A stretch of DNA of 64,000 bases from Planctomycetaceae bacterium. GTDB lineage: Bacteria; Planctomycetota; Phycisphaerae; SM23-33. Shown piece by piece: positions 19,532 to 34,408 of this stretch (position 1 is its first letter; every line of letters starts with the position of its first letter). The stretch is taken from assembly GCA_021371965.1 (NCBI GenBank), contig JAJFVE010000157.1, positions 1 to 64,000 on the forward strand. The letters run 5' to 3'. The position numbers and the translations under genes were made by a program. Under the pieces are notes generated by a model. That model was not told the origin of the DNA. It made no database searches and was given only the letters and a program-made list of their open reading frames with translations.

Positions 19532-20761
19532 ATGACCTTCCATTTCGCCGCTGCCGGCGACTGTACGGCAAGGCCTCTCTTTCTATTTGTGGGAAACGGC
19601 AGTTGCGCCAATCGCGGATGCGAGGCCATACTGCGCGGCACGATGGCCATTCTCCGGAAGGAATTTGGCGCGTGCACTTTTGTTAATATGGGCCCACTGA
19701 CTTTACACGCCGCAGACCCGGACCTTAGGCAGCAGATTACCCGCCGTTTCTCAAAAGAATGGATATTCAGGCAGTTGGGAAAGGTGCTAAAACGCGATTC
19801 ATGGATTAGATATGGTTCGTTGTTGTCGAATGCGGCCGCTGTATTTGCTCTCGGCGGCGACAATGTTTCGCTCGATTACGGCCCTGTACTACCCAAAACT
19901 AATTTTGATTTGGCTGATGCGGCGGTTAGCGGCGGTAAGCCGTTTCTGCTGTGGGGAGCCTCAATAGGTCCGTTTGACAAGCAGCCTGACTTTGAAAGAA
20001 TTGCTGTTCAGAGATTGAAACGATTTACGCGGCTGTGTGTCAGGGAAAGCTGCACACAGGAGTACTTGGCTTCACGGGGAATTGTCGACAACGTCGTGAC
20101 GATGTCCGATCCGGCGTTTGTAATGGCCCCGGAACCATGCGAACTGCCACCAGAGATCGAAAGAATATTGGCTACTGGAGAGGCCATTGGAGTCAACTTA
20201 TCGAATCTTGTTGCCCGATTTAGAACCTCTGATGTCCGCTGGGAAGACGTGGCCGGGGCCTGCCTGCAGGAACTTGATAAACGCCTAGGGCGTCCTATTG
20301 TTCTTGTACCGCATGTGATGACGCCCAAAGGCAATGACCACGTGTTTCTTGCCAGCGTGATGAATTTGTTGCGCGACGTCCCTATACGCAACCAGGTCGT
20401 GCTCGTTGGTCCGGACTATAGCGCGCCTCAGTATAAATGGATTGTATCGCGATTGTCCTTGTTCATCGGTGCCAGGACACATGCGACAATTGCCGCAATC
20501 TCATCGTATATTCCGACTATCTCCATCGGCTACAGCATGAAGGCCAAGGGCATCAATAGAGACGTGTTTGGAGATGTCCGATGGCTTATTCCCGTCGCAG
20601 ATCTCACGCCTTCTAGGCTGACCGATCTGGCAGACACCGCATTACAGAAGGGGGCTTCCATTCGAGCCGGACTTCGAGATGTGATGCCAGGATACATCAA
20701 CAAGGCGTGGCAAGCGGGTTCTTTGGTACGGGAAGTCATTGATGACTGCCATAACCGATAG
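19532..20761 (+). CDS. polysaccharide pyruvyl transferase family protein
   Basis: A 409-aa protein of the CsaB/WcaK family: N-terminal FVGNGSCANRGCEAILRG, glycine-rich FALGGDNVSLDYG, LLWGASIGPF and the C-terminal FIGARTHATIAAISSYIPTISIGYS. Such enzymes transfer pyruvate from phosphoenolpyruvate to polysaccharide hydroxyls to form ketals, though some members have other roles. AGGAG lies upstream of the ATG, which nearly touches the previous stop. It probably modifies the glycan made by this locus, adding negative charge. Base composition is A/T-richer than the downstream genes (hand-counted lines gave 53-55% G+C). Confidence 0.88.
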   Translation: MTFHFAAAGDCTARPLFLFVGNGSCANRGCEAILRGTMAILRKEFGACTFVNMGPLTLHAADPDLRQQITRRFSKEWIFRQLGKVLKRDSWIRYGSLLSNAAAVFALGGDNVSLDYGPVLPKTNFDLADAAVSGGKPFLLWGASIGPFDKQPDFERIAVQRLKRFTRLCVRESCTQEYLASRGIVDNVVTMSDPAFVMAPEPCELPPEIERILATGEAIGVNLSNLVARFRTSDVRWEDVAGACLQELDKRLGRPIVLVPHVMTPKGNDHVFLASVMNLLRDVPIRNQVVLVGPDYSAPQYKWIVSRLSLFIGARTHATIAAISSYIPTISIGYSMKAKGINRDVFGDVRWLIPVADLTPSRLTDLADTALQKGASIRAGLRDVMPGYINKAWQAGSLVREVIDDCHNR

Positions 20762-20848
20762 CCCAAATTGCGTCCTGCAATTCCAGAAGGTCGGCTGCGT
20801 GACGCGGGTCTGCGTGGCTATGAACGATTTATGGGGCTAGCAGTTGGC

Positions 20849-22486
20849 ATGAAGACTTCAACCCGGATAACGCTAAACACCGCTACCAACTGGGCCTATT
20901 CGGGTCTTCGGGCGTTAATTCAATTGGCAATGGTCCCGTTCCTGCTGGAGAAGTTGGGCACCAGCGGGTACGGCATCATCGGTCTGGTAGGCGTTATCGT
21001 CAGCTCGACGGAACTGCTGGACATGGGGCTGCGCTCCGGGTTGGGGCGGCACCTGGCCTTTGAAATCGCCCGCAAGGACTACCGGCGATTCAACGAGCTG
21101 GCCAGCACGGGGCTGGCGACTTATCTGATCCTCGGTTCGCTCTTCGCCTCCGCGTGCATCATTCTTGCCAGGCCTATCGCGGCGTTGTTCAAGGTGCCCC
21201 CGGAATTGGTAAATCAGGCCGTATTCCTCATTCGTGTCTATGGAGGGCTCTCGATCCTGGTGTATTTTCTCCAACCGGTCTTCAACGCCACGATCATCGG
21301 CGAGAACCGCTTTGACATCCGCAATTACCTTGATATGGGCTACACGGTCGTTCAAGGCGGGCTGCTGTTTGCAGTGCTGGGTCTAACCAGCTATGGCCTG
21401 ATGGGCTACACCCTGGTTTCGTCCGGGACGCTGGTGCTTTCTCTGCTGGCGCGGGTATGGGCAGCGAAGCGGCTTTGGCCGAGCATGCGGCTGTCGCCGC
21501 GTTTCGTGCGGCTGGACGCCTTCAAGCCCATGCTGTCGCTGGGCAGCAAGTTATTTGTGTTCCATCTGACCCGGTTTATCAGCATCCGCTCAGATCCGAT
21601 CATCATTACACGGTTCTTCGGTCCTGCCGGGGTGGCATTGTACACGCCCGGGCTGTCGCTGCCGGCGATGGCGGATCAGATCATCGGGGGCTTCAGAGGC
21701 CAGTTAGAAACGGTGGCCACGCGGTTCCACGCTGTGGGCGAAAAAGCCCGCCTTCACGCACTTCTAATACGCGGAACAAAGTACACGCTATTGATGGGGA
21801 TCGCCGCTTGCGTGATTCTTGGGGTGTTCGCGCACTCGATCATCAAGGTCTGGCTGGGGCGGCGGCTGGGAGAGAGCTACCAGATAACGGCCTGGTTCAT
21901 GGTCGGCTGGTCCGTTGTGTACCTCGCTTCGTACGCGGCCGGTACTCAGTGGGCAGTGCTGATGGCGGTCAACCGCATGAACTTCATAACGAAGCTCAAT
22001 GTTGCTTCGGGCATAATCAATGTGCTCGCGTCGATCTACCTGGCGGGGTTCACGCCCTTGGGGGTGTTGGGCGTCATTATCCCGACGGCAATCCTGGCCA
22101 ACATCACACGCCCGATCGTGAGCATTCACACGGCGCGAGTCTGTGGGTTGCCGGTGCGGCGGTATTTTTGGGAGGCGTATGCACGGCCGCTGGTTGTGCT
22201 GGTTATCCTGGCAGCCATCGGCTTGGCCTTGCGATTCGCAGTGAATCCCCAGACACTGTTATCGCTGGCGGCCTGCGTGGCCGCCGTGGCGCTGGCGTGG
22301 CTTCCCCTGTGCTGGTGGGTCGGGTTTGACAAGGAAGACAAGAAGCGATTCGGCGGCATCGCCGACGGCATTCGAAAGAAGATCGGGCTGTCACCCAGGA
22401 ATGGGAGAGTTCCGGCCGATTCGCCGCCGCAGACCCCGTCGCCCGCCGGGACGGCGGATGATGAGGAATCCGACCTGCCCTGCTGA
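20849..22486 (+). CDS. oligosaccharide flippase family protein (Wzx-like)
   Basis: An integral membrane protein of 545 aa with about 12-14 hydrophobic segments and the MOP/polysaccharide-transporter start TRITLNTATNWAYSGLRALI, followed by FLLEKLGTSGYGIIGLVG, a typical Wzx pattern. It should flip lipid-linked oligosaccharide across the inner membrane. ATG 20849 places the first helix correctly; an upstream in-frame TTG would add an unrelated leader. The C-terminus has a Pro/Ser-rich cytoplasmic tail (PADSPPQTPSPAG). It ends six bases from the convergent LamG PEP-CTERM gene. Confidence 0.9.
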   Translation: MKTSTRITLNTATNWAYSGLRALIQLAMVPFLLEKLGTSGYGIIGLVGVIVSSTELLDMGLRSGLGRHLAFEIARKDYRRFNELASTGLATYLILGSLFASACIILARPIAALFKVPPELVNQAVFLIRVYGGLSILVYFLQPVFNATIIGENRFDIRNYLDMGYTVVQGGLLFAVLGLTSYGLMGYTLVSSGTLVLSLLARVWAAKRLWPSMRLSPRFVRLDAFKPMLSLGSKLFVFHLTRFISIRSDPIIITRFFGPAGVALYTPGLSLPAMADQIIGGFRGQLETVATRFHAVGEKARLHALLIRGTKYTLLMGIAACVILGVFAHSIIKVWLGRRLGESYQITAWFMVGWSVVYLASYAAGTQWAVLMAVNRMNFITKLNVASGIINVLASIYLAGFTPLGVLGVIIPTAILANITRPIVSIHTARVCGLPVRRYFWEAYARPLVVLVILAAIGLALRFAVNPQTLLSLAACVAAVALAWLPLCWWVGFDKEDKKRFGGIADGIRKKIGLSPRNGRVPADSPPQTPSPAGTADDEESDLPC

Positions 22487-22492
22487 AACCCC

Positions 22493-23359
22493 TTACGCCC
22501 TTGGGCGTCGGAGGATCGCCAGCCCCGCTACGGCAAACAAGGCCACCGTGGCCGGCTCGGGGGTGGTTTCGGGGGGAGGCATCAGATTGTAATGCTCCAG
22601 CACTTTTTCGGCCGACAGCGCTTGGTCGTAGATGGCGACCTCGTCGATCAGCCCGTTGAAGAAGCGGTCCATGCCGGAACTGGTCATGGTGGCGCCGATG
22701 GTCGGGGACCAGACGTTGGTGGCGTCATAATACGCATACTTGGACCCTTTAAATGACACGCTGGTGCTACGGGCAACGGTTCCGTCGATATAAACGGTGA
22801 CCGTGTCGGCTGCAAAATTCAGCACACCGACAATGTGATGCCACTCACCGATCGAGTTATAGGCGGCCAAGGTGCTCTTGAAGCTTTCGGTTCCATCCGA
22901 CCGCCCACCCAGGGAGATATTGGCCCCGTTCATCTGCAAGGCGGCGCCGGCTTTCTGTCCGATGAATGTGGTGAATATCATGTTTTCTTCAAAGCCGCTT
23001 CCAGGGAGGTCCGCATTGCAGATCCAGGCTTCCACGGTGATGGCGCTGGCGTCCTTCAAGCCGTCTCCAAGACTCTTGGGCAGTTCGACACACGCATCCA
23101 CATTGTTGAAGCTTGCGGCTTGGCCGACAACCCCCTGGACCAGGGAGACGGTCGTGGTGTAGGTGCCGTTACAGCCGGTGCCCATGCTGTTGATGGCCGC
23201 CTGGGAGACGCTGGACTCCTCAAATCGCCAGTAGGCGATGGGGGCATCGGCCACCACGGCGGCGGCGTAGTCAGACACGCTCGCCATGCCGGGAGAGGCA
23301 ATGGCCAATACGATAGTAATAAGGATGCACGCTTGAGAGATTTTCCACGTGGTCTTCAC
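22493..23359 (-). CDS. LamG-like PEP-CTERM protein, second in the window
   Basis: A secreted 288-aa protein. The start is GTG at 23359 with AAGGAG six bases upstream. It has a signal peptide (ISQACILITIVLAIASPGMAS), the LamG opening DAPIAYWRFEESS, the central ITVEAWICNADLP and EWHHIVGVLNFAADTVTVYI, then LIDEVAIYDQALSAEKVLEHY. The tail TPEPATVALFAVAGLAIL followed by RRPRA is a PEP-CTERM signal. It sits inside the glycan locus on the opposite strand, consistent with the known association of PEP-CTERM proteins with exopolysaccharide loci. The ligand is unknown. Confidence 0.9.
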   Translation of the reverse strand: MKTTWKISQACILITIVLAIASPGMASVSDYAAAVVADAPIAYWRFEESSVSQAAINSMGTGCNGTYTTTVSLVQGVVGQAASFNNVDACVELPKSLGDGLKDASAITVEAWICNADLPGSGFEENMIFTTFIGQKAGAALQMNGANISLGGRSDGTESFKSTLAAYNSIGEWHHIVGVLNFAADTVTVYIDGTVARSTSVSFKGSKYAYYDATNVWSPTIGATMTSSGMDRFFNGLIDEVAIYDQALSAEKVLEHYNLMPPPETTPEPATVALFAVAGLAILRRPRA

Positions 23360-23627: not shown

Positions 23628-24233
23628 ATGACATTGAACTCGAACGAACCATTGATTCGCCAGCGGTTTGAAGAGGCCGCGTCGCTGACACGCTTGGCGC
23701 AGGAGCAGTTGGCGCCGCGCATCGCCGCGGCGGCCGATGCTATCGTGGCCGCCTATCGCAACGGCGGCGGGGTGTTCCTGTTCGGCAATGGCGGCTCGGC
23801 GGCCGACGCGCAGCACATGGCCGGCGAGCTGGTGGGACGGTTCCTCAAGAACCGCCGCGCCCTCAAGGCCGAGGCGCTGACGGTCAACAGTTCGGTTCTG
23901 ACGGCGCTGGCCAACGATTTCGGGTATCAGAGCGTCTTCGCCCGGCAGCTTGAGGCCAACGCCAAGAGCGGCGACGTGGCCGTGGCCTTGAGCACCTCGG
24001 GCAACGCGCCCAGTGTGATCGCCGCGATGAAGCAGGCCAAAGCCATGGGCCTGACGACGATCGCCCTCACCGGCCGCGGCGGTGGACAGTGCGCCGCCCT
24101 GGCCGACATCCTGCTGGACATTCCCTCCGACCAGACCCCCCGGATTCAGGAAGTATCGACGATCGTGTACCACGTGCTGTGCGAACTGGTGGAAGCCCAA
24201 GCCGGCGCGGCTGATCTGCCTGGAGTAAGATGA
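23628..24233 (+). CDS. gmhA: SIS-domain phosphosugar isomerase, GmhA-like
   Basis: A 201-aa protein with the phosphoheptose isomerase signature FLFGNGGSAADAQHMAGELVG, then LTALANDFGYQSVFARQLEA and ALSTSGNAPSVIAAMKQAKAMG. GmhA converts sedoheptulose-7-phosphate to heptose-7-phosphate. ATG 23628 gives the family length; the frame upstream is not GmhA-like. Its last base codes overlap the ATG of the SpsF-NeuB fusion by four bases (ATGA), so the two are translationally coupled. No other heptose-pathway gene (hldE, gmhB) was seen here, so it may act on a different phosphosugar supplying the ulosonate synthase. Confidence 0.88.
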   Translation: MTLNSNEPLIRQRFEEAASLTRLAQEQLAPRIAAAADAIVAAYRNGGGVFLFGNGGSAADAQHMAGELVGRFLKNRRALKAEALTVNSSVLTALANDFGYQSVFARQLEANAKSGDVAVALSTSGNAPSVIAAMKQAKAMGLTTIALTGRGGGQCAALADILLDIPSDQTPRIQEVSTIVYHVLCELVEAQAGAADLPGVR

Positions 24234-25996
24234 TGAGAGTCAGAGCCGTTGTACAAGCCCGCATGTTGAGCACCCGTCTTCGCGGCAAGAGCCTCATCGC
24301 CGTGGCGGGCAAGCCGCTTCTGGCCCGGGTGCTGGAGCGCCTTGCGGCGATGTCGTTCCTGGACGAAGTGTGCGTGGCCACCACGCATGACGCCGCCGAC
24401 GAACCCATCGGCGCCCTCGTCGCCAGCCGCAACATGAAGTGCATCCGCGGCGATCGCCTCGATGTGCTGGGGCGGTTCCTCCAGGCCGCCGCCGACCTCG
24501 ACGACAACGACACGATCGTCCGATTCACGGCAGACAATCCGCTGTATGACCCGGGGCGTTCGGCGCAGGCGTTCCAGGCTCATCTGGCCGCCAAGGCCGA
24601 CTACACGCACGTGGACGGGCTGAGCCACATGGTTCCCGAATTCATCCGCGTCGGGGCGCTGCGGCAGGCCGCTGCGGCGACGGCAGAACCGTTCGACCAC
24701 GAGCATGTCACTCCATATCTGCGCAAAAACCCTGAGCAGTTCAAGGTGCAGAAACTCAGCGGCGACTTCGCGGGCCTGCGTCCCGAGCTCGACGCACACC
24801 TGACGATCGACAGTTGGGACGATCTGGAGATGTTCGAGAAGATGCTTCACGACATCGAGCATCCCAACGAGTTCGTGCGTCTGGACGACTGCTATCTCTG
24901 GCTGGACCGCAACCGCGCCGGGCTGCAGGGCGTGGTTACGCATCCGCCCGATCAACTCCGCGTGAAGATCGCCGGGCACGAGATCGGCGACGGCTGCCCC
25001 TGCTTCATCATCGCCGAGATCGGGCAGAACCATAACGGTCAGGTTGGCATGGCCAAGCGCCTGATCGACATGGCCGCCCGCTGCGGCTGCGACGCGGTGA
25101 AGTTCCAAAAGCGCGACATCAAGTGGGAACTGACCGAAGAGGTCTACAACAAGCCTTACGATAATCCCAATTCGTTCGCGGCCACGTACGGCAAGCACCG
25201 CGAGTTCCTCGAGCTCAACGAAGAGCAGCACAAGGAGCTGCGCGAATACGCCATGGCGCGGCGGCTGATCTACTTCTGCACCGCCTGCGACGAACCGTCG
25301 GTGGAGATGATGGAGCGCGTGGGCAACCCCATCTACAAGATCGCTTCGCGAGACATCACGAACATTCCGCTGCTCAAAGCCGTCGCCCGCACCCGAAAGC
25401 CCGTGATCCTCTCGACGGGAATGGCTGGTCTGCAGGAACTGGCCGAGGCGCGCGAGGCCCTGGGCGACTCGCCCGAGGCCGTCATCATCATGCAGTGCGT
25501 TTCGCAGTATCCCGCCGAGGTCGAGCACGTCAACCTCAAGGCCATGCAGACCATCCGCAAGGAAACCGGCCTGCTGGTGGGCCTGTCGGATCACACCCCC
25601 GGCGTCATCACGCCGGTGGCCGCGGCGGTCATGGGCGCGTGCATGGTCGAAAAACACGTGACCCTCTCGCGCGCGATGCAGGGAACCGACCACGCCGCTG
25701 CCCTGGAAGAGGAAGGCCTGCGGCGCATGGTCGACTACATTCGGCTCTGCGCCATCGCCATGGGCGACGGCAAGAAGGTCTACGACGACGTGGCCGAAAG
25801 CGCCCGCAAGAAACTCTCCCGCAGCCTGACCAGCAAAGGCCCCATCGCGGCCGGGGCGGTGCTGACGGAAGAGATGCTTTGCCTCAAGAGCCCCGGCACG
25901 GGGATCCTGTGGCGCGACAAGGGGCTGATCGTCGGCAAGAAGGCCAGGAAAGACATCGCCTCTGACGTAACCCTCAGCGTCGAAGACTTCCAATAA
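24230..25996 (+). CDS. fusion: SpsF-type cytidylyltransferase + NeuB-type nonulosonate synthase + SAF domain
   Basis: A 588-aa protein. Residues 1 to about 225 are an SpsF/CMP-sugar nucleotidyltransferase-like domain (RAVVQARMLSTRLRGKSL, GDRLDVLGRFLQAAADLD, IVRFTADNPLYDP). Residues about 245-500 are a NeuB/SpsE synthase (FIIAEIGQNHNGQVGMAKRL, DAVKFQKRD, KIASRDITNIPLL, GLSDHTPG, MVEKHVTLSRAMQGTDHAAAL), which condenses phosphoenolpyruvate with an N-acylhexosamine-type sugar. The final 60 residues form an SAF/antifreeze-like domain. Normally these are separate proteins (SpsE and SpsF in Bacillus spore coat synthesis). The fusion implies synthesis and CMP-type activation of one acidic sugar by one polypeptide. 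The exact sugar is unknown. Confidence 0.9.
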   Translation: MMRVRAVVQARMLSTRLRGKSLIAVAGKPLLARVLERLAAMSFLDEVCVATTHDAADEPIGALVASRNMKCIRGDRLDVLGRFLQAAADLDDNDTIVRFTADNPLYDPGRSAQAFQAHLAAKADYTHVDGLSHMVPEFIRVGALRQAAAATAEPFDHEHVTPYLRKNPEQFKVQKLSGDFAGLRPELDAHLTIDSWDDLEMFEKMLHDIEHPNEFVRLDDCYLWLDRNRAGLQGVVTHPPDQLRVKIAGHEIGDGCPCFIIAEIGQNHNGQVGMAKRLIDMAARCGCDAVKFQKRDIKWELTEEVYNKPYDNPNSFAATYGKHREFLELNEEQHKELREYAMARRLIYFCTACDEPSVEMMERVGNPIYKIASRDITNIPLLKAVARTRKPVILSTGMAGLQELAEAREALGDSPEAVIIMQCVSQYPAEVEHVNLKAMQTIRKETGLLVGLSDHTPGVITPVAAAVMGACMVEKHVTLSRAMQGTDHAAALEEEGLRRMVDYIRLCAIAMGDGKKVYDDVAESARKKLSRSLTSKGPIAAGAVLTEEMLCLKSPGTGILWRDKGLIVGKKARKDIASDVTLSVEDFQ

Positions 25997-26003
25997 GGTT
26001 CCC

Positions 26004-26672
26004 ATGCCCCTGCAGGCGCTGATTTTTGACATGGGGGACATTCTGTTCGACGCGTCGCTCTGGCGGCGATGGCTCACGGTGCGGCTCAACGAACTCGGCG
26101 TCAGCATCACGTATGAGCAGCTCGTCCAGGCCTGGGAAGCGCTGCTCGTGGATGTCTACCGCGGGCGGGCTGACTACTGGCAGCGATTCGGTCAGCTCTT
26201 GGCCGACCAGGGGCTCGACCCTTCCGCCGCCGCGGCGCTGACGCAGGAAGCGCGCGACAAAGGCAAGGCGCTGGCGGCCTCGCGAACGCTCTTTGACGGG
26301 GTGGCGCAGACGCTGGCCGATCTTAAGGCGGCCGGCATCAAGCTGGCTGTTCTGTCCGACAACGAGTCCGGGCAGGCCGCCGTGGTCCGCATGCTGGCCG
26401 ACCTGGGCGTCGCCGACTGTTTCGACGCCGTCCTCTCATCGCGCGACCTCGGTCACGCCAAGCCGGACCCCCGCGCCTTTGCCGCGGCGGTGCAGGCGAT
26501 TGGCCTGACCCAAACCGCGTGCGGATTCGTCGGCCACGATATCGACGAACTCACCGGCGCCCGCGAGGCGGGTCTGCTGGCCATCGGATTCAACTATCAC
26601 CCCGAGGCGCCGGCCGACCGGTATATCGAACGTTTCGGCGATCTGCTGGACGTGGTCAAGGAGCAGACGTGA
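26004..26672 (+). CDS. HAD-superfamily phosphatase-like hydrolase
   Basis: A 222-aa HAD hydrolase with an alpha-helical cap. Motif I reads FDMGDILFD (nucleophile Asp retained, the usual second Asp of DxD replaced by Gly, as in the DxGN-type branch). Motif II is AVLSDNES, the motif III lysine lies in LGHAKPDPRAF, and motif IV is FVGHDIDELTGA. It follows the synthase fusion by seven bases and overlaps the next gene, so it may remove phosphate from the ulosonate-phosphate or its precursor. That role is inferred from position only. Confidence 0.85.
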   Translation: MPLQALIFDMGDILFDASLWRRWLTVRLNELGVSITYEQLVQAWEALLVDVYRGRADYWQRFGQLLADQGLDPSAAAALTQEARDKGKALAASRTLFDGVAQTLADLKAAGIKLAVLSDNESGQAAVVRMLADLGVADCFDAVLSSRDLGHAKPDPRAFAAAVQAIGLTQTACGFVGHDIDELTGAREAGLLAIGFNYHPEAPADRYIERFGDLLDVVKEQT

Positions 26673-27673
26673 TTCACGGATGGGTTCTGGTAGCCGGATA
26701 CGGCTCGATTGGCCGACGGCACTTCCGCAATCTGCAGGCGCTGGGATGCTCAGACGTTCGGCTACTGCGAGGCCGCGCCCGCGCCGGTTCGTTTGAATCG
26801 CCTGACAACGCGAAAGTCTACACCGACCTCTCCCAGGCGCTGGCGGACAAACCTGTGGCGGTCATCGTGGCCAATCCCACGTCGCTGCATGTGAGCGTGG
26901 CCGTCGCAGCCTTGCAGGCCGGCGCCCATGTGGTCCTGGAAAAGCCCGTCGCCGCCGATCTGCAGGCCGCCGCCGCGCTGGTCGACGCCGCGCGAACCTC
27001 CCGCGGGCACTGCAGCATGGCGTACTGCTTCCGCTATCACCCGCTGTACCGCAAGGTCCACGACGTGGTGACCTCAGGCCGCATCGGGCGTGCATTTCAC
27101 GCCCACACCTGGCAGGGGAGTTTTCTGCCCTCGTGGCATCCTTGGGAAGACTATCACGAGAGCTACGCCGCCCGCAGCGACATGGGCGGCGGCGTCATTC
27201 GCACCCTCGATCACGATCTGGACGTGCTGCGATGGACGCTGGGCCAGCCCGAGTCGGTGCTGGCATCCGGCGGCGCGCTGTCGGGCATCGGCATCTCGGC
27301 CGAGGACACTGCCGACATGATCTTCCGCTTTCCGCAGCGCGTGCAGGCGTGCGCTCACCTGAGCTTCGCCCGGCAGGATTACTGCCGCGGCATGTGGGTT
27401 GTCGGCGAAGAAGGCAGCGTGAACCTGGACTGGAACGCGCGCAGCGTGACGGTCTTCAAAGGCAAAGAGCCGGACGAGACGCTGCAACTGCCGGCCGATT
27501 TCGACCTCAACACGATCTACATCGAAATGCTGCGCGACGCACTGGCAGGCTTCGCCGCCTCGCCGCCGCGGGCGGCTATCGAACTGACTGAAGGACTGGC
27601 CTCGCTGGAGATGGCCTTGGGTGCTTTGCAGTCCAGCCGCGAAGGCCGCGCCGTGACCCTGAAAGGAGCTTGA
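26669..27673 (+). CDS. Gfo/Idh/MocA family oxidoreductase of the ulosonate cassette
   Basis: A 334-aa enzyme starting at GTG 26669, which overlaps the HAD stop by four bases and has AAGGAG upstream. The Rossmann motif is VLVAGYGSIGRRHFRNL, the catalytic motif is canonical (VVLEKPVAADLQAA), and the C-terminal domain has DMGGGVIRTLDHDLDVL. Members act on sugar or nucleotide-sugar hydroxyls. Close packing with the NeuB fusion and an SDR suggests it modifies the acidic sugar or its precursor. The upstream extension of the same frame overlaps the HAD gene and is not expected to be coding. Confidence 0.88.
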   Translation: MIHGWVLVAGYGSIGRRHFRNLQALGCSDVRLLRGRARAGSFESPDNAKVYTDLSQALADKPVAVIVANPTSLHVSVAVAALQAGAHVVLEKPVAADLQAAAALVDAARTSRGHCSMAYCFRYHPLYRKVHDVVTSGRIGRAFHAHTWQGSFLPSWHPWEDYHESYAARSDMGGGVIRTLDHDLDVLRWTLGQPESVLASGGALSGIGISAEDTADMIFRFPQRVQACAHLSFARQDYCRGMWVVGEEGSVNLDWNARSVTVFKGKEPDETLQLPADFDLNTIYIEMLRDALAGFAASPPRAAIELTEGLASLEMALGALQSSREGRAVTLKGA

Positions 27674-27676
27674 CGG

Positions 27677-28468
27677 ATGGGACGCATTGAAGACTTGTAT
27701 CGCCTCGATGGGCAGGTGGCCGTGGTCAGCGGCGGCGGCGGGCAGATCGGCGCCAAGCTGTGCGAGATCCTCGCCGAGGCCGGCGCCGATATCGTCATGG
27801 TCGATAACAACGCCGAACTGGCAGCGAGCGAGTCCAAGCGCATCGCCGCGGCGACGCAGCGCCAGGTCGTGCCCAAGGCCGTCGACATCACCTCCGAAGA
27901 CGCCGTCAAACAATTGGCCGCCGAGGTGTACGACCAGTTCGGCCGCTGTGACATCCTGATCAATGCCGCCCACTACAAGGGCGGGGCATTCTTCGCGCCG
28001 CTGGATCAGTACCCTCTCGACGCCTGGAAGCGCGTGCTCGAGGTGAACTTGACCGGTGCGTTCCTGACCTGCCGCGAGATCGGCGGACGCATGTACAAAG
28101 GCAACGGCGGCGTGATTGTCAATTTCTCGTCGACGTACGGTCTGGTCAGTCCGGACCCGCGAATCTACGGCGAGAGCGGCATCAATTCGCCCATCGCCTA
28201 TGCGGCCACCAAGAGCGGGCTGATCAACATGACGCGGTACATCGCCATCCACTGGCGTCCCAAGGTGCGCGCCAACGTGTTGGCCCCCGGCGGCGTCGAA
28301 GCCGGTCAGGCACCGGAGTTCATTCACCATTACGTCGACCGCACACCGCTGGGCCGCATGGCCAAACGCGACGACTACCAGGGCGCCATCCTCTTTATGT
28401 GCTCTAAGGCTTCAGACTATATGACCGGCGCCGTCGTCACCGTCGATGGCGGCTGGACCGCCTGGTGA
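27677..28468 (+). CDS. short-chain dehydrogenase/reductase (SDR)
   Basis: A 263-aa classical SDR: cofactor loop VAVVSGGGGQIGAKLCEIL, LINAAHYKGG (the NAAH variant of the usual NNAG), the catalytic serine in NFSSTYG, and the YxxxK pair in PIAYAATKSGL. The tail MTGAVVTVDGGWTAW is typical. It lies three bases after the Gfo/Idh/MocA gene. SDRs of this type occur in legionaminic/nonulosonate loci (the PtmA-like position), which supports, but does not prove, a role in making the same sugar. Confidence 0.9.
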   Translation: MGRIEDLYRLDGQVAVVSGGGGQIGAKLCEILAEAGADIVMVDNNAELAASESKRIAAATQRQVVPKAVDITSEDAVKQLAAEVYDQFGRCDILINAAHYKGGAFFAPLDQYPLDAWKRVLEVNLTGAFLTCREIGGRMYKGNGGVIVNFSSTYGLVSPDPRIYGESGINSPIAYAATKSGLINMTRYIAIHWRPKVRANVLAPGGVEAGQAPEFIHHYVDRTPLGRMAKRDDYQGAILFMCSKASDYMTGAVVTVDGGWTAW

Positions 28469-28486
28469 TTTCGGCATAGTGAAAGC

Positions 28487-30106
28487 ATGAACAAGAAGAA
28501 GCTTCGCAAAGCAGTAGGGCTGTCGCGGCGCGACGGTCTGCGCCTGAGGCTTGGACCGGTGCTGGCCCGGATGGGCCGCATAGTGGGCATGAAATGGCCG
28601 GCCCTGGGTCTCAAGATCGGTCGCGAGACGCTCATCGCCCAGGCGCGCAGTCTCTGGCCGGTGCGGGCGGTCTTGCCGGCCGAGAAACCCCTGCGGGTAG
28701 TCTTCATGACGATGATGGGCGGCAACCACCGCCTTTGCAGCACCGAGGTGCTCCTGGGACGCATCCTGCAGGCCCGTGGCCATCAGGTCAGCTACGTTTT
28801 GTGCGACCAGATGCTGCCGGCTTGCGAAGTCAAATGGCAAGGCAAGGAGTATGACTGGCAGCGCAGTTGCGCCAAGTGCTACGAGTTCGGCCGCCAGTTT
28901 GTTGGCGGAGCCGGTTACGACATTCTCCCGGCCAGCGATCTCATCGCCGGCCAGCAGGACCAGGGCGCGTGGAAAGAGTATGTAGACGCGGCCTTGCTGA
29001 AGCACTACCACGTGGGCGTCTTGCCCCAGAGCCCCGAGGTTGCGGCGCGGCGCGAACTGTTCGTGCAGGCCGCTCAGGTTACCGCGCGGGTGGGCAAGGC
29101 GCTGGCGGCGATGAAACCCGACCGCGTCGTCATGTCGCATGGGATCTACTGCACTTGGGGACCGGCTCGCGAGGTGCTGCTCGAGGCGAGCATCCCCGTG
29201 CTCACGTACGGCGAGGGCAAAAAGAAGGACACGATCAAGTTCAACTGGAATACCTCGGCCGACTGGTGGGATGTCTCCAAGGAATGGCAGAAGGTGCGGG
29301 ACGTGCCGTTGACGGCTGAGCAGGAAAAGACCATCGACGACTATCTGGCCTCCCGGCGCACTCATTCCAAAGACGCCCGTGTGTACAATTTTGGCCGCGA
29401 GGAAACCCTCGAAGAAACGCGCCGCCGGCTGAACCTGGAACCGGACAAGCAGACCTTCGTCCTGTTCACGAACGTTCTGTGGGACGCCGCCAGCGCCCAG
29501 CGCGAAATCGCCTTCAAGAACCCCATTGAGTGGGTGACGGCCACCATCGCCTGGTTTGCCGGGCATCCGGACAAGCAACTGGTGGTGAAGATCCATCCAG
29601 CCGAGGTGGTCATCGGGACCAGTCAGCCCTTCGCTTTGTTGATCCGGCAGGAGTTCCCCAACCTGCCGGCGAACGTCCGCGTGATCGAGCCCCACGAGAA
29701 GGTCAACAGTTGGTCTATCATGCGCGTGGCCGACCTGGGCCTAGTGCACACCAGCACCATCGGGATGGAACTGCAGCTCGAAGGCATCCCGGTGGCCGTA
29801 GTGTCCAAGACGCACTTCCGCGGCCGCGGATTTACCATCGACGTCAACAGCCGCCAGGAATACTTCGACCTGATCGAGCAGTGGGATGGATCGAAAGTCG
29901 ACCGTCAGCGGCTTGCGACGCTGTCGAAGCGCTACGCCTATCTGCTGTTCGAGCGCTATCAGTTGCACTTCCCGTTCTTGTTCGAAAACCGCGTCAACGA
30001 TGTCCGGGCGATGATCAACATCGAAGAGGCGTCGCTGCTCACGCATCCTTCCGTGCAGGTGTTCTTACGAGGCTTTGAGAATAGGCAGGAGCTTCTTGTG
30101 CCCTGA
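28487..30106 (+). CDS. KpsS/capsule-biosynthesis-like glycosyltransferase
   Basis: A 539-aa protein without a signal peptide and with a basic N-terminus. The second half has the pattern of capsule polysaccharide biosynthesis proteins (KpsS/LipB-like): QLVVKIHPAEVVIG, VRVIEPHEKVNSWSIMRVAD and LVHTSTIGMELQLEGIPVAV, which form the nucleotide-sugar pocket. A CxxC pair occurs near residue 127 (SCAKCYEFG). KpsS-type enzymes transfer Kdo, a CMP-activated ulosonate. Here it is the last gene of the ulosonate cassette, so transfer of the CMP-sugar made by its neighbours is a natural hypothesis. Confidence 0.72.
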   Translation: MNKKKLRKAVGLSRRDGLRLRLGPVLARMGRIVGMKWPALGLKIGRETLIAQARSLWPVRAVLPAEKPLRVVFMTMMGGNHRLCSTEVLLGRILQARGHQVSYVLCDQMLPACEVKWQGKEYDWQRSCAKCYEFGRQFVGGAGYDILPASDLIAGQQDQGAWKEYVDAALLKHYHVGVLPQSPEVAARRELFVQAAQVTARVGKALAAMKPDRVVMSHGIYCTWGPAREVLLEASIPVLTYGEGKKKDTIKFNWNTSADWWDVSKEWQKVRDVPLTAEQEKTIDDYLASRRTHSKDARVYNFGREETLEETRRRLNLEPDKQTFVLFTNVLWDAASAQREIAFKNPIEWVTATIAWFAGHPDKQLVVKIHPAEVVIGTSQPFALLIRQEFPNLPANVRVIEPHEKVNSWSIMRVADLGLVHTSTIGMELQLEGIPVAVVSKTHFRGRGFTIDVNSRQEYFDLIEQWDGSKVDRQRLATLSKRYAYLLFERYQLHFPFLFENRVNDVRAMINIEEASLLTHPSVQVFLRGFENRQELLVP

Positions 30107-31421: not shown

Positions 31422-33230
31422 ATGATCTGTGTGGCTGCTGTAACCGGTGACTCGATCGCCGGCAATAACGAGGAAACCTGTTTTCTTCGCTGGCGTCAGG
31501 CCGTCGACCCGGCACGGATGCGCTTTGACAACCTTCATTCAGCGAGATATCCGTGGGGCTGGCTCGCCATCTCAGGCTTTCAGATTGAGCAATACCCCGT
31601 TCAACTGGATGGCGGCCAAATGGCGACTCTCTATCTTGAAGGCACGCTTCTATCTGCAGAACTCCTGCGCTCGATTCGAGCGGGCCAGGCCGACCAGCGG
31701 ACTTTGGAAGAACTCCGCCTGTCAAATGGGCAGTACATCTATGTCGTTGTTGGCAACGATCCATCACGGTGGTGCTTTGAGTGCGGTTCCGACGGCATGG
31801 GCACACGCCCTTTGTTCTTTGCCTGCCGGGACCAAAGCAGATGCTTTTCTACGCACGCGTCATTGTGTGCGATGCTGAACGGACAGGCCGCACTGGACGT
31901 TGAATCCGTAAGGGACTATGTCATCAAGGACTGCTTGCTTCCTGAGGCGTGCCTCTTGTCCGGCGTGCGGCGGTTGAAAAGAGGACAGGCTGTCCACTGG
32001 GATGGACGCGAACTGACGGTTTCCGGCGACACTGCTGCTGAGACATCAACCGTCAGACTTGAGGAAGCATGTCAGTCGCTTGTTGAAGCGGCAAAGGGAC
32101 TCCCCTCCTATCCCATGACACCACTGCTCAAGTTGACCGGAGGAAAAGACTCCCGGCTGGTCATGTCGTCGCTTCTGGCTGCGGGTGTTTCTTTTGAGGC
32201 TATCACGCACAGCCATCCTTGCGAAGACAGTCTGAAGGCCGGATCGCTTACTTCCGCAGTGGGTGTAAAGCATTGGATGCTGCCGGTAGTCGAGGCAGAT
32301 CCAGTTTCCATCGTCAGCCATTATTTTGGGATCCTGCCACTGACAGATGGATTGGCTTCATTCCCCCCCGTGGACGCCAGCAGAGACCGGATAGAAGACT
32401 TCATCGTTTCCCGCGGTATGCTGGAATTGGGCGGAGCATTCGGCGCGGCGCATCGCGGCTACTGGGACAATGCCGCATTGGCGGCAAATGATTCCAGCAC
32501 TTGCCTTTTCGCCAGACTGTTTCAGCCCAAGTATGACATTCTGTACCCTTCCTGTGACACGGTGAAAGATGCGATGGATAAGTGGCTGTCTGTGCTGAAA
32601 TCCATGCCGGCGCCGGATGAATTCGCGGCGCTGCAAGTGCTCTGGCTTGATGGACGCTTTCGTGGCGTCATTGCCATGAACTGCAACGCCGCCCCCAACA
32701 AGTTCGCTTGGTTACTTGCAAATCGGCAGTTCTATTGCCATTCCTTGCAGAGGCCACGACACGAGCGACAGGCAGCAGCAGTCTTCAAGCAGGCTATCTC
32801 ACTGCTGGCGTCGGGGCTTCTTAACGTTACGCCCTTCACGGTGTCGAGCCCACCCGTGGCGCGGCAGGGAACGTCGTTAAATCCATATCGGAGGCTTCGC
32901 AGATTGCTTTCTCAATCCACCACCGTACACAAGTGTCGCGGGGCCTTGCTGAATCGGAAGGAACGGCACAGCGGGCTCGGACGCATGCGGCTGGCCTTCA
33001 TGGCGGATCCCCGAAAGAAAGAATGGCTGGGACAGTTCTTCTCGCCGGACGGAATTTCACAATTGGCCACTTGCAGCAAAACTTTTCTGCCTCAGATTGA
33101 CAGGCTGATGGGAATCTATTTCTTCAATATGTTTCTGGAGCAACTGAATCTACATCCGCGTTCAGGCCACTGTGACTGGCGGAGGCAGGCTCTGGATGAA
33201 ATATTCGCTGACTCTGCAGAACAGGCATGA
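31422..33230 (+). CDS. asparagine-synthase-like protein
   Basis: A 602-aa protein whose ATG abuts the previous stop codon. The ATP-pyrophosphatase core is seen as PLLKLTGGKDSRLVMSSLL with MSRGMLELGGAFGAAHRG-like text further on. The N-terminal region is only weakly like a class II glutaminase: it begins MICVAAV, so Cys is residue 3 rather than 2, and FECGSDGMGTRPLFFA recalls the AsnB GSDRxGxRPLYY segment. In O-antigen loci such proteins amidate uronic acids or couple amino groups. Whether glutaminase activity survives is doubtful. Next come alanine racemase and an acyltransferase. Sampled G+C is about 57%, below later genes. Confidence 0.75.
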   Translation: MICVAAVTGDSIAGNNEETCFLRWRQAVDPARMRFDNLHSARYPWGWLAISGFQIEQYPVQLDGGQMATLYLEGTLLSAELLRSIRAGQADQRTLEELRLSNGQYIYVVVGNDPSRWCFECGSDGMGTRPLFFACRDQSRCFSTHASLCAMLNGQAALDVESVRDYVIKDCLLPEACLLSGVRRLKRGQAVHWDGRELTVSGDTAAETSTVRLEEACQSLVEAAKGLPSYPMTPLLKLTGGKDSRLVMSSLLAAGVSFEAITHSHPCEDSLKAGSLTSAVGVKHWMLPVVEADPVSIVSHYFGILPLTDGLASFPPVDASRDRIEDFIVSRGMLELGGAFGAAHRGYWDNAALAANDSSTCLFARLFQPKYDILYPSCDTVKDAMDKWLSVLKSMPAPDEFAALQVLWLDGRFRGVIAMNCNAAPNKFAWLLANRQFYCHSLQRPRHERQAAAVFKQAISLLASGLLNVTPFTVSSPPVARQGTSLNPYRRLRRLLSQSTTVHKCRGALLNRKERHSGLGRMRLAFMADPRKKEWLGQFFSPDGISQLATCSKTFLPQIDRLMGIYFFNMFLEQLNLHPRSGHCDWRRQALDEIFADSAEQA

Positions 33231-33280: not shown

Positions 33281-34408
33281 GTGAAGACACATCTGACGGC
33301 CGAAATTTCAGCGTCCACGTTGGCTTATAACATCACCTCCATCCGCCGACACCTTGAGCCATACGTGAAACTTTGTGCCGTCGTCAAGGCCGACGCCTAT
33401 GGGCACGGGCTGGAACTCATGGTGCCAGCGATGCTGCCGCACGCGGACGCCTTTGCGGTGGCCACAGCCGAGGAGGCCTTCGACGTGCGGCGCGTGGCGC
33501 CGCGAGTGCCCCTGCTGGTATTCTTCACGCCCGGCTCGATCGAGCCAGGGCATGTCGAATTGACGCTGGCCGAACTGGTGCGACTGGATGTCATCATCAG
33601 CATCGTCAGCGCGGCCGAAGTGGCGGCCGTCACCACGGCTGCGGCATTGGCCGGAGAGCAGGCCATGGTACACATCAAGGTCGACACCGGCATGGGGCGC
33701 AGCGGTGTGCTGCCTGAGCAGTTCCCGAAACTGCTGGCTACGGTTCTCTCGCATGAAGGCATCCGTCTGCAGGGGCTTTACACGCATCTGCCGCTGGCCG
33801 ATGAAGGCGACTGGAACTACACGTCTATGCAACTCGACCGGTTACGGCAATGCGCCGCGGCCTGTCCGCCCACCATGACGTTGTGCCGCCATGCCGCTAA
33901 CTCCGCCGCCACGATGGGCTATCCCTCGTCGCATCTGGATATGGTGCGTCCGGGGCTGGCTATCTACGGATATCGAACAGGTGATGATTGCCCTGGCCAG
34001 GAAGCGCTGCGGCCGGCGCTGCGGGTGACGGCGCGGCTTATGCAGGTCAAAGATGTCGACGCCGGAACGCGATGCGGATACGGCTTGACATACGCCATGC
34101 CCGCGGCAGGGCGGATCGGCTTGGTGCCCATCGGCTATGCCGACGGATACCTGCGGAGTTTTTCAAATCGTGCCTGCATGAAGGTTCGCGGCCAGTCTGC
34201 ACGCGTCATCGGGCGCGTGTCGATGGACCAGACGATCATCGATTTGACAGGCATTGCAGGCGCGGCTGTCGGCGACGAAGTGGAAGTGATCTCGTCAGAT
34301 CGCAACGAGCCGAATTCGGTGGAGAATCTGGCGAAGATGGCCGGAACCATTCCGTATGAGATCATTGTGCGCCTGGGGGCGCGCGTTCGCCGGGTGCTGA
34401 GAGATTAG
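33281..34408 (+). CDS. alr: alanine racemase
   Basis: A 375-aa PLP enzyme interconverting L- and D-alanine. The PLP lysine lies in CAVVKADAYGHGLELM, followed by MVHIKVDTGMGRSGV, the HAANSAAT phosphate-binding turn, RPGLAIYGY, and the second-domain catalytic tyrosine in RCGYGLTYAMP; RVSMDQTIIDLT closes the active site. The start is GTG 33281 after a 50-bp gap. Usually this gene serves peptidoglycan; embedded between an asparagine-synthase-like gene and a hexapeptide acyltransferase in a glycan locus, it may be dedicated to D-alanine for glycan decoration. It could also be the only housekeeping copy. Confidence 0.92.
   Translation: MKTHLTAEISASTLAYNITSIRRHLEPYVKLCAVVKADAYGHGLELMVPAMLPHADAFAVATAEEAFDVRRVAPRVPLLVFFTPGSIEPGHVELTLAELVRLDVIISIVSAAEVAAVTTAAALAGEQAMVHIKVDTGMGRSGVLPEQFPKLLATVLSHEGIRLQGLYTHLPLADEGDWNYTSMQLDRLRQCAAACPPTMTLCRHAANSAATMGYPSSHLDMVRPGLAIYGYRTGDDCPGQEALRPALRVTARLMQVKDVDAGTRCGYGLTYAMPAAGRIGLVPIGYADGYLRSFSNRACMKVRGQSARVIGRVSMDQTIIDLTGIAGAAVGDEVEVISSDRNEPNSVENLAKMAGTIPYEIIVRLGARVRRVLRD

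What the first reader, a model, noticed from the sequence alone, without database searches (positions are those of the whole stretch)
23628..30106. Compact cassette for an unidentified CMP-activated nonulosonate-type sugar
Six plus-strand genes with overlaps or gaps of a few bases encode a GmhA-like isomerase, an SpsF-NeuB fusion, a HAD phosphatase, a Gfo/Idh/MocA enzyme, an SDR and a KpsS-like transferase. Seen: order, spacing and family motifs. Known: NeuB enzymes make nonulosonates, SpsF/NeuA-type enzymes activate them with CMP, and KpsS-type enzymes transfer the CMP-activated ulosonate Kdo. Inferred: the cassette makes, dephosphorylates, remodels and transfers one acidic sugar. A phosphoheptose-type isomerase, two dehydrogenases and the absence of NeuC-, LegB- or PseB-type genes do not match the standard sialic, legionaminic or pseudaminic acid routes as I know them. 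This is the best candidate for an undescribed system here.
Basis: partly seen in the sequence, partly recalled or inferred. Interest (0 to 1): 0.72.

Follow-up and report, generated by a model that had tools for sequence, protein, structure and literature searches.

The report
Fused CMP-Kdn-type acidic sugar operon
A bacterium, probably a planctomycete, carries a tight set of six genes that most likely makes, activates, alters and attaches a sialic-acid-like sugar by the little-studied Kdn route, with two of the steps fused into one protein; this is a new variant of a known kind of pathway rather than a wholly new one.

Summary
The six genes are real, open and tightly packed at 23628-30106. 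The NeuB half of the fusion is of a 'KFQKR' type: 62 of 148 such NeuB domains have a HAD phosphatase gene nearby (0 of 31 others) and 1 of 148 has NeuC (12 of 31 others), although few branches of the tree carry this contrast. It has Ser where Neisseria NeuB has Arg314. In 3 of 6 fetched relatives the fusion sits beside a protein over the curated Kdn-9-phosphate phosphatase cut-off; in 2 of 6 beside the window's own HAD type. The last gene's predicted fold is closest to the Kdo transferases KpsC and WbbB. The SDR and Gfo genes resemble two genes of an Azospirillum legionaminate-type cluster; their chemistry is unassigned. The phosphoheptose-isomerase-like gene is probably not core: the 5 fusion-bearing genomes searched lack it, though similar isomerases joined NeuB clusters elsewhere. 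Sugar identity, redox steps and the isomerase's role are inferred. New variant of a known kind.

The parts
23628..24233 (+). GmhA-like SIS isomerase, 201 aa; overlaps the fusion by 4 bases; probably a lineage-specific addition
   Evidence: PF13580 104.8 bits; TIGR00441 gmhA 176.9 bits against cut-off 209.45; solved phosphoheptose isomerases to E 1.9e-50; no homologue at E<=1e-15 in the 5 fusion-bearing genomes searched
24230..25996 (+). SpsF-NeuB-SAF fusion, 588 aa: predicted phospho-ulosonate (Kdn-9-P-type) synthase plus CMP-ulosonate synthetase
24230..24940 (+). SpsF-type cytidylyltransferase domain of the fusion
   Evidence: PF02348 at residues 6-205; model residues 1-229 match 6oew
25061..25777 (+). 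NeuB domain with the KFQKR motif (K294, R295) and the PY..S...TYG.HR..LE loop
   Evidence: PF03102 at residues 278-516; loop read; motif statistics
25820..25987 (+). SAF (antifreeze-like) domain; Ser554 at the place of N. meningitidis NeuB Arg314
   Evidence: PF08666 at residues 531-586; alignment to 4ipi and 4ipj, the R314A and R314K structures
26004..26672 (+). HAD hydrolase, FDxGD motif; predicted ulosonate-9-phosphate phosphatase
   Evidence: PF00702 82.1 bits; same type beside the fusion in L001 and L122, while L121, L123 and L004 have a protein over the Kdn-9-P phosphatase cut-off
26669..27673 (+). Gfo/Idh/MocA oxidoreductase, 334 aa (PtmF-like position)
   Evidence: PF01408 66.4 bits; 78 bits to an unnamed neighbour of the cytidylyltransferase in the Azospirillum LegB-LegC-NeuC cluster L219
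27677..28468 (+). SDR oxidoreductase, 263 aa (PtmA-like position)
   Evidence: PF13561 152.9 bits; 197 bits to the SDR of L219 and 188 bits to that of Halorussus L220
28487..30106 (+). GT-B protein, 539 aa; predicted CMP-ulosonate transferase with KpsC/WbbB-like fold
19532..22486 (+). context: polysaccharide pyruvyl transferase (19532-20761) and flippase-like gene (20768-22486) of the same polysaccharide locus
   Evidence: PF04230 104.3 bits; PF13440 47.2 bits
30156..31421 (+). context: group-1 glycosyltransferase directly downstream (gap 49)
   Evidence: PF13692 72.9 bits; start and stop

Best explanation
The cassette is a CMP-Kdn-type nonulosonate operon inside a surface polysaccharide locus. 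A hexose 6-phosphate (most likely mannose 6-phosphate) is condensed with PEP by the NeuB half of the fusion to an ulosonate 9-phosphate. The HAD enzyme removes the phosphate and the SpsF half makes the CMP sugar. The Gfo/SDR pair oxidises and reduces a hydroxyl (epimerisation or a deoxy/keto change) of the sugar. The KpsC-fold protein transfers the sugar to the growing glycan. Shown here: gene content, order, recurrence, motifs and folds. Inferred: substrates, the order of the redox steps, the final sugar, and that the GmhA-like isomerase is an add-on rather than a core step.
For: (1) Beside the fusion, L121 (within 0.6 kb), L123 and L004 (overlapping) have a protein above the curated cut-off (180) of NF058599, Kdn-9-phosphate phosphatase: 242.7, 211.3 and 219.8 bits. 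The window's HAD type takes that place in L001 and L122. So 5 of 6 fusion-bearing relatives show a phosphatase beside the fusion; in the sixth, L002, the contig starts inside the fusion. (2) KFQKR-type NeuB against others, 179 non-redundant domains: HAD phosphatase within 6 kb on the same strand 62/148 against 0/31; within 1.5 kb 54/148 against 0/31; NeuC within 6 kb 1/148 against 12/31. (3) The Arg314 place is Ser in the window; Arg in 0 of 65 KR-type and 22 of 25 other domains that have a letter there. (4) The last gene's fold is closest to Kdo transferases. (5) CMP-Kdn in B. thetaiotaomicron runs through phosphorylated intermediates (PMC6200933, passages). (6) In the capped lists of 120 hits each, fusion and KpsS-like share 14 exact contig lengths (13 besides the window's own), 13 of the 14 among the 63 listed fusion contigs of 10 kb or more.
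Against: The window's own HAD is not listed under the Kdn-9-P phosphatase model among the 25 of 32 families shown, and has Gly where DxD phosphatases have the second Asp (FDMGD; the rule is recalled). No Kdn-synthase model appeared, so ManNAc-6-P is not excluded. The KR/phosphatase association rests on few independent branches: 5 label changes, 4-5 independent pairs, no significance possible, and the HAD and KdsC query sequences came from KR loci. Amino-sugar-type genes are not always far away: L001 has a LegC-like aminotransferase (259 bits) about 4.6 kb upstream, and unfused L003 has a LegB-like gene (143 bits) directly upstream. KpsS-like was found in 2 of 5 fusion-bearing genomes. The Gfo/SDR pair is not explained by plain Kdn. 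The GmhA-like gene overlaps the fusion by 4 bases, which argues for co-expression.
Confidence: 0.6

Rival explanations
1. The isomerase is part of the route: sedoheptulose 7-phosphate is turned into a heptose 7-phosphate, and NeuB makes a ten-carbon (decul-)ulosonate phosphate.
For: SIS and fusion overlap by ATGA; GmhA-type relatives in the PDB. SIS genes lie within 6 kb of 12 of 148 KR-type NeuB, the window being one of the 12, and 0 of 31 others, needing 10 changes on the tree. In L205 a transaldolase-family gene, SIS and NeuB are consecutive.
Against: 12/148 against 0/31 is not significant (p 0.13). The 5 fusion-bearing genomes searched lack a SIS homologue at E<=1e-15 (drafts of unstated completeness; the genome of L004 was not searched). 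In the capped lists, close SIS homologues share no contig length with fusions except the window's own.
Confidence: 0.1
2. Ordinary Neu5Ac by the phosphorylated (animal-like) route from ManNAc 6-phosphate, with Gfo/SDR as decoration.
For: KR-type NeuB plus phosphatase fits any 9-phosphate route; SDR relatives also occur in clusters with NeuC.
Against: None of the six family assignments is an enzyme that makes ManNAc 6-phosphate; the 39 kb epimerase is WecB-type. Ser replaces the Arg314-equivalent residue. The phosphatase beside the fusion in 3 of 6 relatives is over the Kdn-9-P phosphatase cut-off.
Confidence: 0.15
3. The Gfo/SDR pair acts before NeuB, building an unusual hexose or amino-sugar phosphate, so the product is not Kdn-based.
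For: The Plesiomonas paper places PtmA in the first step of the Leg route, which makes the GDP sugar (PMC4481668, passages). Gfo- and SDR-type genes lie within 6 kb of 12 and 34 of 148 KR-type NeuB, where NeuC is rare (1 of 148). A LegC-like gene lies upstream in L001.
Against: No aminotransferase or second nucleotidyltransferase is in the cassette; SDR genes of this type lie within 200 bases of a NeuA-type gene in 14 of 38 cases, which fits action near CMP activation as well.
Confidence: 0.15
4. An independent GmhA gene (heptose for another glycan) lies by accident upstream of a five-gene ulosonate operon.
For: SIS not found in the fusion-bearing genomes searched; its closest listed homologues (88-60%) sit on contigs whose lengths do not occur in the fusion list. 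Compatible with the best explanation.
Against: 4-base overlap; recurrent SIS-NeuB proximity in several phyla.
Confidence: 0.55

Closest known systems
CMP-Kdn pathway (Bacteroides thetaiotaomicron; haptophyte Prymnesium parvum)
   Same: NeuB-family synthase, phosphatase, CMP synthetase; a protein over the NF058599 Kdn-9-P phosphatase cut-off beside the fusion in 3 of 6 relatives
   Different: synthase and CMP synthetase fused; a different HAD type in the window; extra Gfo, SDR, KpsC-fold transferase and SIS
PtmA/PtmF pair of legionaminic acid clusters (Campylobacter, Plesiomonas)
   Same: an SDR plus a Gfo-type gene near a CMP-nonulosonate synthetase; homology to two such genes in the Azospirillum LegB/LegC/NeuC cluster
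   Different: no LegB, LegC, LegG, PtmE or GDP-sugar genes in the cassette; no direct comparison with Campylobacter sequences was made
Kdo pathway and KpsC/WbbB Kdo transferases
   Same: same step logic (phosphosugar, PEP synthase, phosphatase, CMP transferase, CMP-ulosonate transferase) and transferase fold
   Different: NeuB family, not KdsA; transferase sequence identity about 10-14% in the structural alignments
GmhA D-sedoheptulose 7-phosphate isomerase
   Same: SIS_2 domain; best PDB relatives and many database relatives carry that name
   Different: below the cut-offs of all four phosphoheptose isomerase models listed; operon partner is a nonulosonate synthase

Membership tests
CMP-Kdn pathway | Kdn-9-phosphate phosphatase (NF058599) | tested here: not met
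   NF058599 is not among the 25 best of 32 families listed for the window HAD. The protein beside the same fusion in L121, L123 and L004 exceeds the cut-off.
CMP-Kdn pathway | NeuB-family synthase of the phosphosugar type | tested here: inconclusive
   KFQKR motif, Ser at the Arg314 place, phosphatase association; no Kdn-synthase model appeared
CMP-Kdn pathway | acceptor is mannose 6-phosphate and product is Kdn | not testable with these tools
   needs enzyme assay and LC-MS
Neu5Ac pathway (NeuC-NeuB-NeuA) | hydrolysing UDP-GlcNAc 2-epimerase NeuC in the cassette | tested here: not met
   no such match among the six proteins; the 39 kb gene is wecB (474.5 bits) and below the NeuC cut-off
Neu5Ac pathway (NeuC-NeuB-NeuA) | NeuB equivalog TIGR03569 | tested here: not met
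   310.1 bits, cut-off 399.65
Pseudaminic acid pathway | PseI equivalog TIGR03586 | tested here: not met
   237.5 bits, cut-off 340.25
Legionaminic/pseudaminic acid pathways | LegB/PseB dehydratase and aminotransferase in the cassette | tested here: not met
   none listed for the six proteins
KpsC/KpsS-WbbB Kdo transferases | PF05159 Capsule_synth over cut-off | tested here: not met
   19.9 bits, cut-off 20; 6 of the 120 listed homologues carry PF05159
KpsC/KpsS-WbbB Kdo transferases | GT-B fold of the Kdo transferases | tested here: met
KpsC/KpsS-WbbB Kdo transferases | use of a CMP-ulosonate donor | not testable with these tools
   needs assay
GmhA | gmhA equivalog TIGR00441 | tested here: not met
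   176.9 bits, cut-off 209.45
GmhA | SIS_2 domain and closest solved relatives | tested here: met
PtmA/PtmF pair | SDR and Gfo-type homologues beside a nonulosonate cytidylyltransferase in a classical cluster | tested here: inconclusive
   197 and 78 bits to two L219 genes, but the Gfo-like one has no Pfam match at E<=1e-5 and the window Gfo does not match the Gfo beside the Halorussus SDR at E<=1e-3; Campylobacter sequences not compared

The most novel reading that the evidence does not exclude
NeuB-family synthases of the KFQKR type have repeatedly been joined to GmhA-like isomerases to build higher ulosonates on the logic of the Kdo pathway; in this window the isomerase feeds the fusion a heptose 7-phosphate, giving a ten-carbon ulosonic acid that Gfo/SDR then alter.
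Probability: 0.08. Interest if true: 0.85.

Novelty: new variant of a known kind. Interest (0 to 1): 0.45.

Why it matters
Nonulosonates are being measured in environmental bacteria and sludges (titles and abstract openings of PMC8053191 and PMC10483923, listing); in my judgement it is still mostly unclear which genes make which of these sugars. A fused Kdn-9-P synthase/CMP synthetase would be a single-gene marker for a Kdn-type route in Planctomycetota and Bacteroidota. The KFQKR motif with the Arg314 place gives a testable sequence rule for NeuB enzymes that use phosphorylated sugars, and the orphan Gfo/SDR pair becomes a defined target for assay.

Tried and rejected
Undescribed nonulosonate core: weakened when relatives of the fusion proved to sit beside proteins over the Kdn-9-P phosphatase cut-off.

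SIS as core enzyme: weakened by its absence at E<=1e-15 in the 5 fusion-bearing genomes searched (a sixth genome, G003, with unfused genes, has one at 41%; the genome of L004 was not searched) and by no shared contig length with the fusion list other than the window's own.

Survey of the fusion: a match spanning both domains in 1 of 392 genomes of the phylum of G001 (E<=1e-60) and 4 of 395 of the phylum of G002 (E<=1e-90); 1 of 149 in the family of G001, 1 of 9 in the family of G628, 1 of 196 in the order of G504. Each tally includes the centre genome, which I chose for having the fusion; leaving it out gives 0 of 391, 3 of 394, 0 of 148, 0 of 8 and 0 of 195. The samples overlap. The viral-contig scan (80 of 393 kept) gave no ORF with both domains.

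Phylogenetic control of the KR/phosphatase association: underpowered. A first motif scan by regular expression left 56 domains unclassified; it was replaced by alignment columns (repeated with longer flanks for 18 regions fetched). In one search, 200 NeuB-like ORFs were cut to 179: rows with more than 60 gaps in the domain or over 90% identical to a kept row were dropped, and small duplicate loci (L081-L120, L131, L210-L218) were left out beforehand.

Profile search of the last protein against PDB sequences gave only chance-level KpsC matches; the fold comparison was needed. A search of plasmids with the fusion found no record at 60% identity or more (0 of 104).

Literature: 0 papers of the held library combine sedoheptulose, nonulosonic and NeuB, and 0 combine SpsF, sialic acid synthase and fusion. 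The 1 row and the 15 rows listed of 24 were not on point by title and abstract opening; two searches gave no account of such a cassette in their listings. The role of PtmA/PtmF could be read only second-hand (passages of PMC4481668; one search found no other paper). PMC7371886 was read in one passage, PMC6200933 in 12 passages.
Full report
What is there. Six plus-strand genes run from 23628 to 30106 with overlaps or gaps of -4, 7, -4, 3 and 18 bases and no internal stops. Pfam and NCBIfam confirm SIS_2; cytidylyltransferase + NeuB + SAF in one 588-residue protein; a HAD hydrolase; a Gfo/Idh/MocA enzyme; an SDR; and a protein just under the Capsule_synth cut-off. The cassette lies in a larger polysaccharide locus with a pyruvyl transferase, a flippase-like gene and a group-1 glycosyltransferase. 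No whole genome is held for the window.

Conservation. A protein search found 2078 hits to the fusion among 8000 scored candidates; the 120 listed are 53-100% identical and each shows both the NeuB and the cytidylyltransferase Pfam domain. Named hits include Planctomycetota and Bacteroidota (Saprospiraceae, Lewinella). L001 repeats the window's order fusion-HAD-Gfo-SDR-KpsS-like until its contig ends. L002 has the fusion, one other gene, Gfo and SDR. L122 has fusion-HAD. L121, L123 and L004 have the fusion with a KdsC-type HAD; L123 also a Gfo gene. L121 has the KpsS-like gene about 6 kb downstream (436 bits). Over the five fusion-bearing genomes searched, the SDR is found in 4 (in G765 close to the Gfo gene; in G628 about 15 kb from the fusion, 43% identical) and the KpsS-like protein in 2. 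So fusion plus phosphatase is the steady core; Gfo, SDR and KpsS-like are frequent but not constant. L003 carries cytidylyltransferase, NeuB and HAD as three adjacent, unfused genes. In a tree of 179 NeuB domains the six fused rows that could be placed (window, L001, L002, L121, L122, L123) form one set with SH-aLRT 99. Genomes with a match spanning both domains are rare: 1 of 392 (the centre genome itself) and 4 of 395 (one of them the centre).

Indirect linkage. In the two capped lists of 120, fusion and KpsS-like hits share 14 exact 'longest contig' lengths, 13 besides the window's own; 13 of the 63 listed fusion contigs of 10 kb or more (the window's own among them) have such a partner, 50 do not. 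Fusion and SIS hits share none besides the window's own (lists). This is a proxy for sharing a contig, not a direct reading.

Kdn-9-phosphate link. The KdsC-type proteins beside the fusion in L121, L123 and L004 score 242.7, 211.3 and 219.8 bits against NCBIfam NF058599, 3-deoxy-D-glycero-D-galacto-nonulopyranosonate 9-phosphatase, cut-off 180. Of eight KdsC-type proteins that I picked by hand from KFQKR-type NeuB loci without the fusion (L005, L006, L008, L016, L022, L024, L031, L050), none reached that cut-off (72.6-173.5 bits). A protein in L088, a second NeuB locus of the L002 genome, scored 180.5 with a cytidylyltransferase-like domain in front. In the window, L001 and L122 the place is taken by a different HAD with the motif FDxGD, also seen in L003. 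The simplest reading is replacement of one phosphatase by another, which supports a phosphatase role for the window's HAD without proving it.

A NeuB sequence rule. The fusion's NeuB reads VKFQKRD and carries a PY..S...TYG.HR..LE loop; from memory this resembles human NANS, which uses phosphorylated sugars (not tested). Among the 31 other domains the two residues after KxQ are mostly TF (11) or TY (6). Over 179 non-redundant domains: HAD phosphatase gene on the same strand within 6 kb, 62 of 148 KR against 0 of 31 others (Fisher p 4.8e-7); within 1.5 kb, 54 of 148 against 0 of 31; restricted to loci with enough flank at 6 kb, 42 of 85 against 0 of 16. NeuC within 6 kb: 1 of 148 against 12 of 31. 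LegB: 4 of 148 against 7 of 31. Gfo and SDR do not differ (12 and 34 of 148 against 4 and 4 of 31). The place of N. meningitidis Arg314 (mutated in PDB 4ipi and 4ipj) is Arg in 0 of 65 KR and 22 of 25 other domains with a letter there; it is Ser554 in the window. Caveats: the loci were chosen by likeness to the fusion, the HAD and KdsC queries came from KR loci, and the KR label changes only 5 times on the tree, so an independent-pairs test (4-5 pairs) cannot reach significance.

Redox pair. The SDR and Gfo are homologous (197 and 78 bits) to an SDR and an unnamed protein flanking the cytidylyltransferase in a LegB-LegC-NeuC cluster of Azospirillum thermophilum. The unnamed protein has no Pfam match at E<=1e-5. 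The SDR also matches (188 bits) one beside a cytidylyltransferase in Halorussus, but the window's Gfo does not match the Gfo gene next to it at E<=1e-3. SDR genes of this type (over 140 bits) lie within 200 bases of a NeuA-type gene in 14 of 38 cases and of a Gfo gene in 11 of 38. In position the two genes recall PtmA/PtmF; PMC4481668 (passages) lists PtmF as oxidoreductase and places PtmA in the first, GDP-sugar step of the Leg route. Without the GDP-sugar genes that role cannot apply here unchanged, so the reaction is open: I favour oxidation and reduction at one hydroxyl of Kdn or CMP-Kdn, with low confidence in the position.

Facts that pull towards an amino sugar. L001 has a LegC-like aminotransferase (259 bits) about 4.6 kb upstream of the fusion, with an acetyltransferase-like and a dehydratase-like gene beside it (labels by eye), and L003 has a LegB-like gene (143 bits) directly upstream of its cytidylyltransferase. 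They may serve another sugar of the same polysaccharide, but I cannot exclude that they feed the NeuB.

The isomerase. It overlaps the fusion by 4 bases, but none of the five fusion-bearing genomes searched has a homologue at E<=1e-15 (drafts of unstated completeness). SIS genes do lie within 6 kb of 12 of 148 KR-type NeuB (the window included) across several phyla, needing 10 changes on the tree, sometimes with a transaldolase-family gene (L205) or a TPP enzyme and TIM-barrel genes (L031, L064). So sugar-phosphate isomerases have been recruited to such clusters repeatedly, and the window may be one more case; this keeps the C10 reading alive at low probability.

Verdict. A new variant (fused synthase/CMP synthetase, alternative phosphatase, redox pair, KpsC-fold transferase) of a known kind, the Kdn-type nonulosonate route.

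Noticed in passing
L205 8657-16178 (IMG/VR contig): Transaldolase-family, GmhA-like SIS, NeuB, NeuA, aminotransferase-like, two TIM-barrel, Gfo and SDR genes in a row on a contig catalogued as viral.
   Followed up: partly
L031 10058-16667; L064 9911-16568: Recurrent clusters with short NeuB, KdsC-type phosphatase, SIS, TPP enzyme, TIM barrel, Gfo and SDR in different phyla; product unknown.
   Followed up: partly
L219 9539-14963 (Azospirillum thermophilum plasmid): A surface carbohydrate protein, NeuB, HisF/HisH-like and N-acetyl sugar amidotransferase genes run on from a LegB-LegC-NeuC cluster, suggesting an amidino-modified sugar (inference).
   Followed up: no
L121 14602-15870; L122 4428-5774: Related proteins of 423 and 449 aa, which look like the DUF4910 aminopeptidase-like family (label recalled, not tested), lie in both fusion loci.
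   Followed up: no
window 31422-33230: 602-aa protein without a Pfam (E<=1e-5) or NCBIfam (E<=1e-15) match, with an LTGGKDSR stretch recalling PP-loop amidotransferases (by eye).
   Followed up: no
window 33281-34408: An alanine racemase (TIGR00492 289.7 bits, cut-off 168) sits in the middle of the polysaccharide locus.
   Followed up: no
window 22493-23359 (-): Minus-strand protein ending in a PEP-CTERM-like tail (read by eye) splits the polysaccharide locus just upstream of the cassette.
   Followed up: no
L002 1536-2192: A gene that looks like a TylF-type methyltransferase (by eye) lies between fusion and Gfo, so the sugar may be methylated in that lineage.
   Followed up: no
L001 2-2744; L003 837-1772: LegC-like aminotransferase with acetyltransferase-like and dehydratase-like genes upstream of the fusion in L001, and a LegB-like gene directly upstream of the unfused set in L003.
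   Followed up: partly
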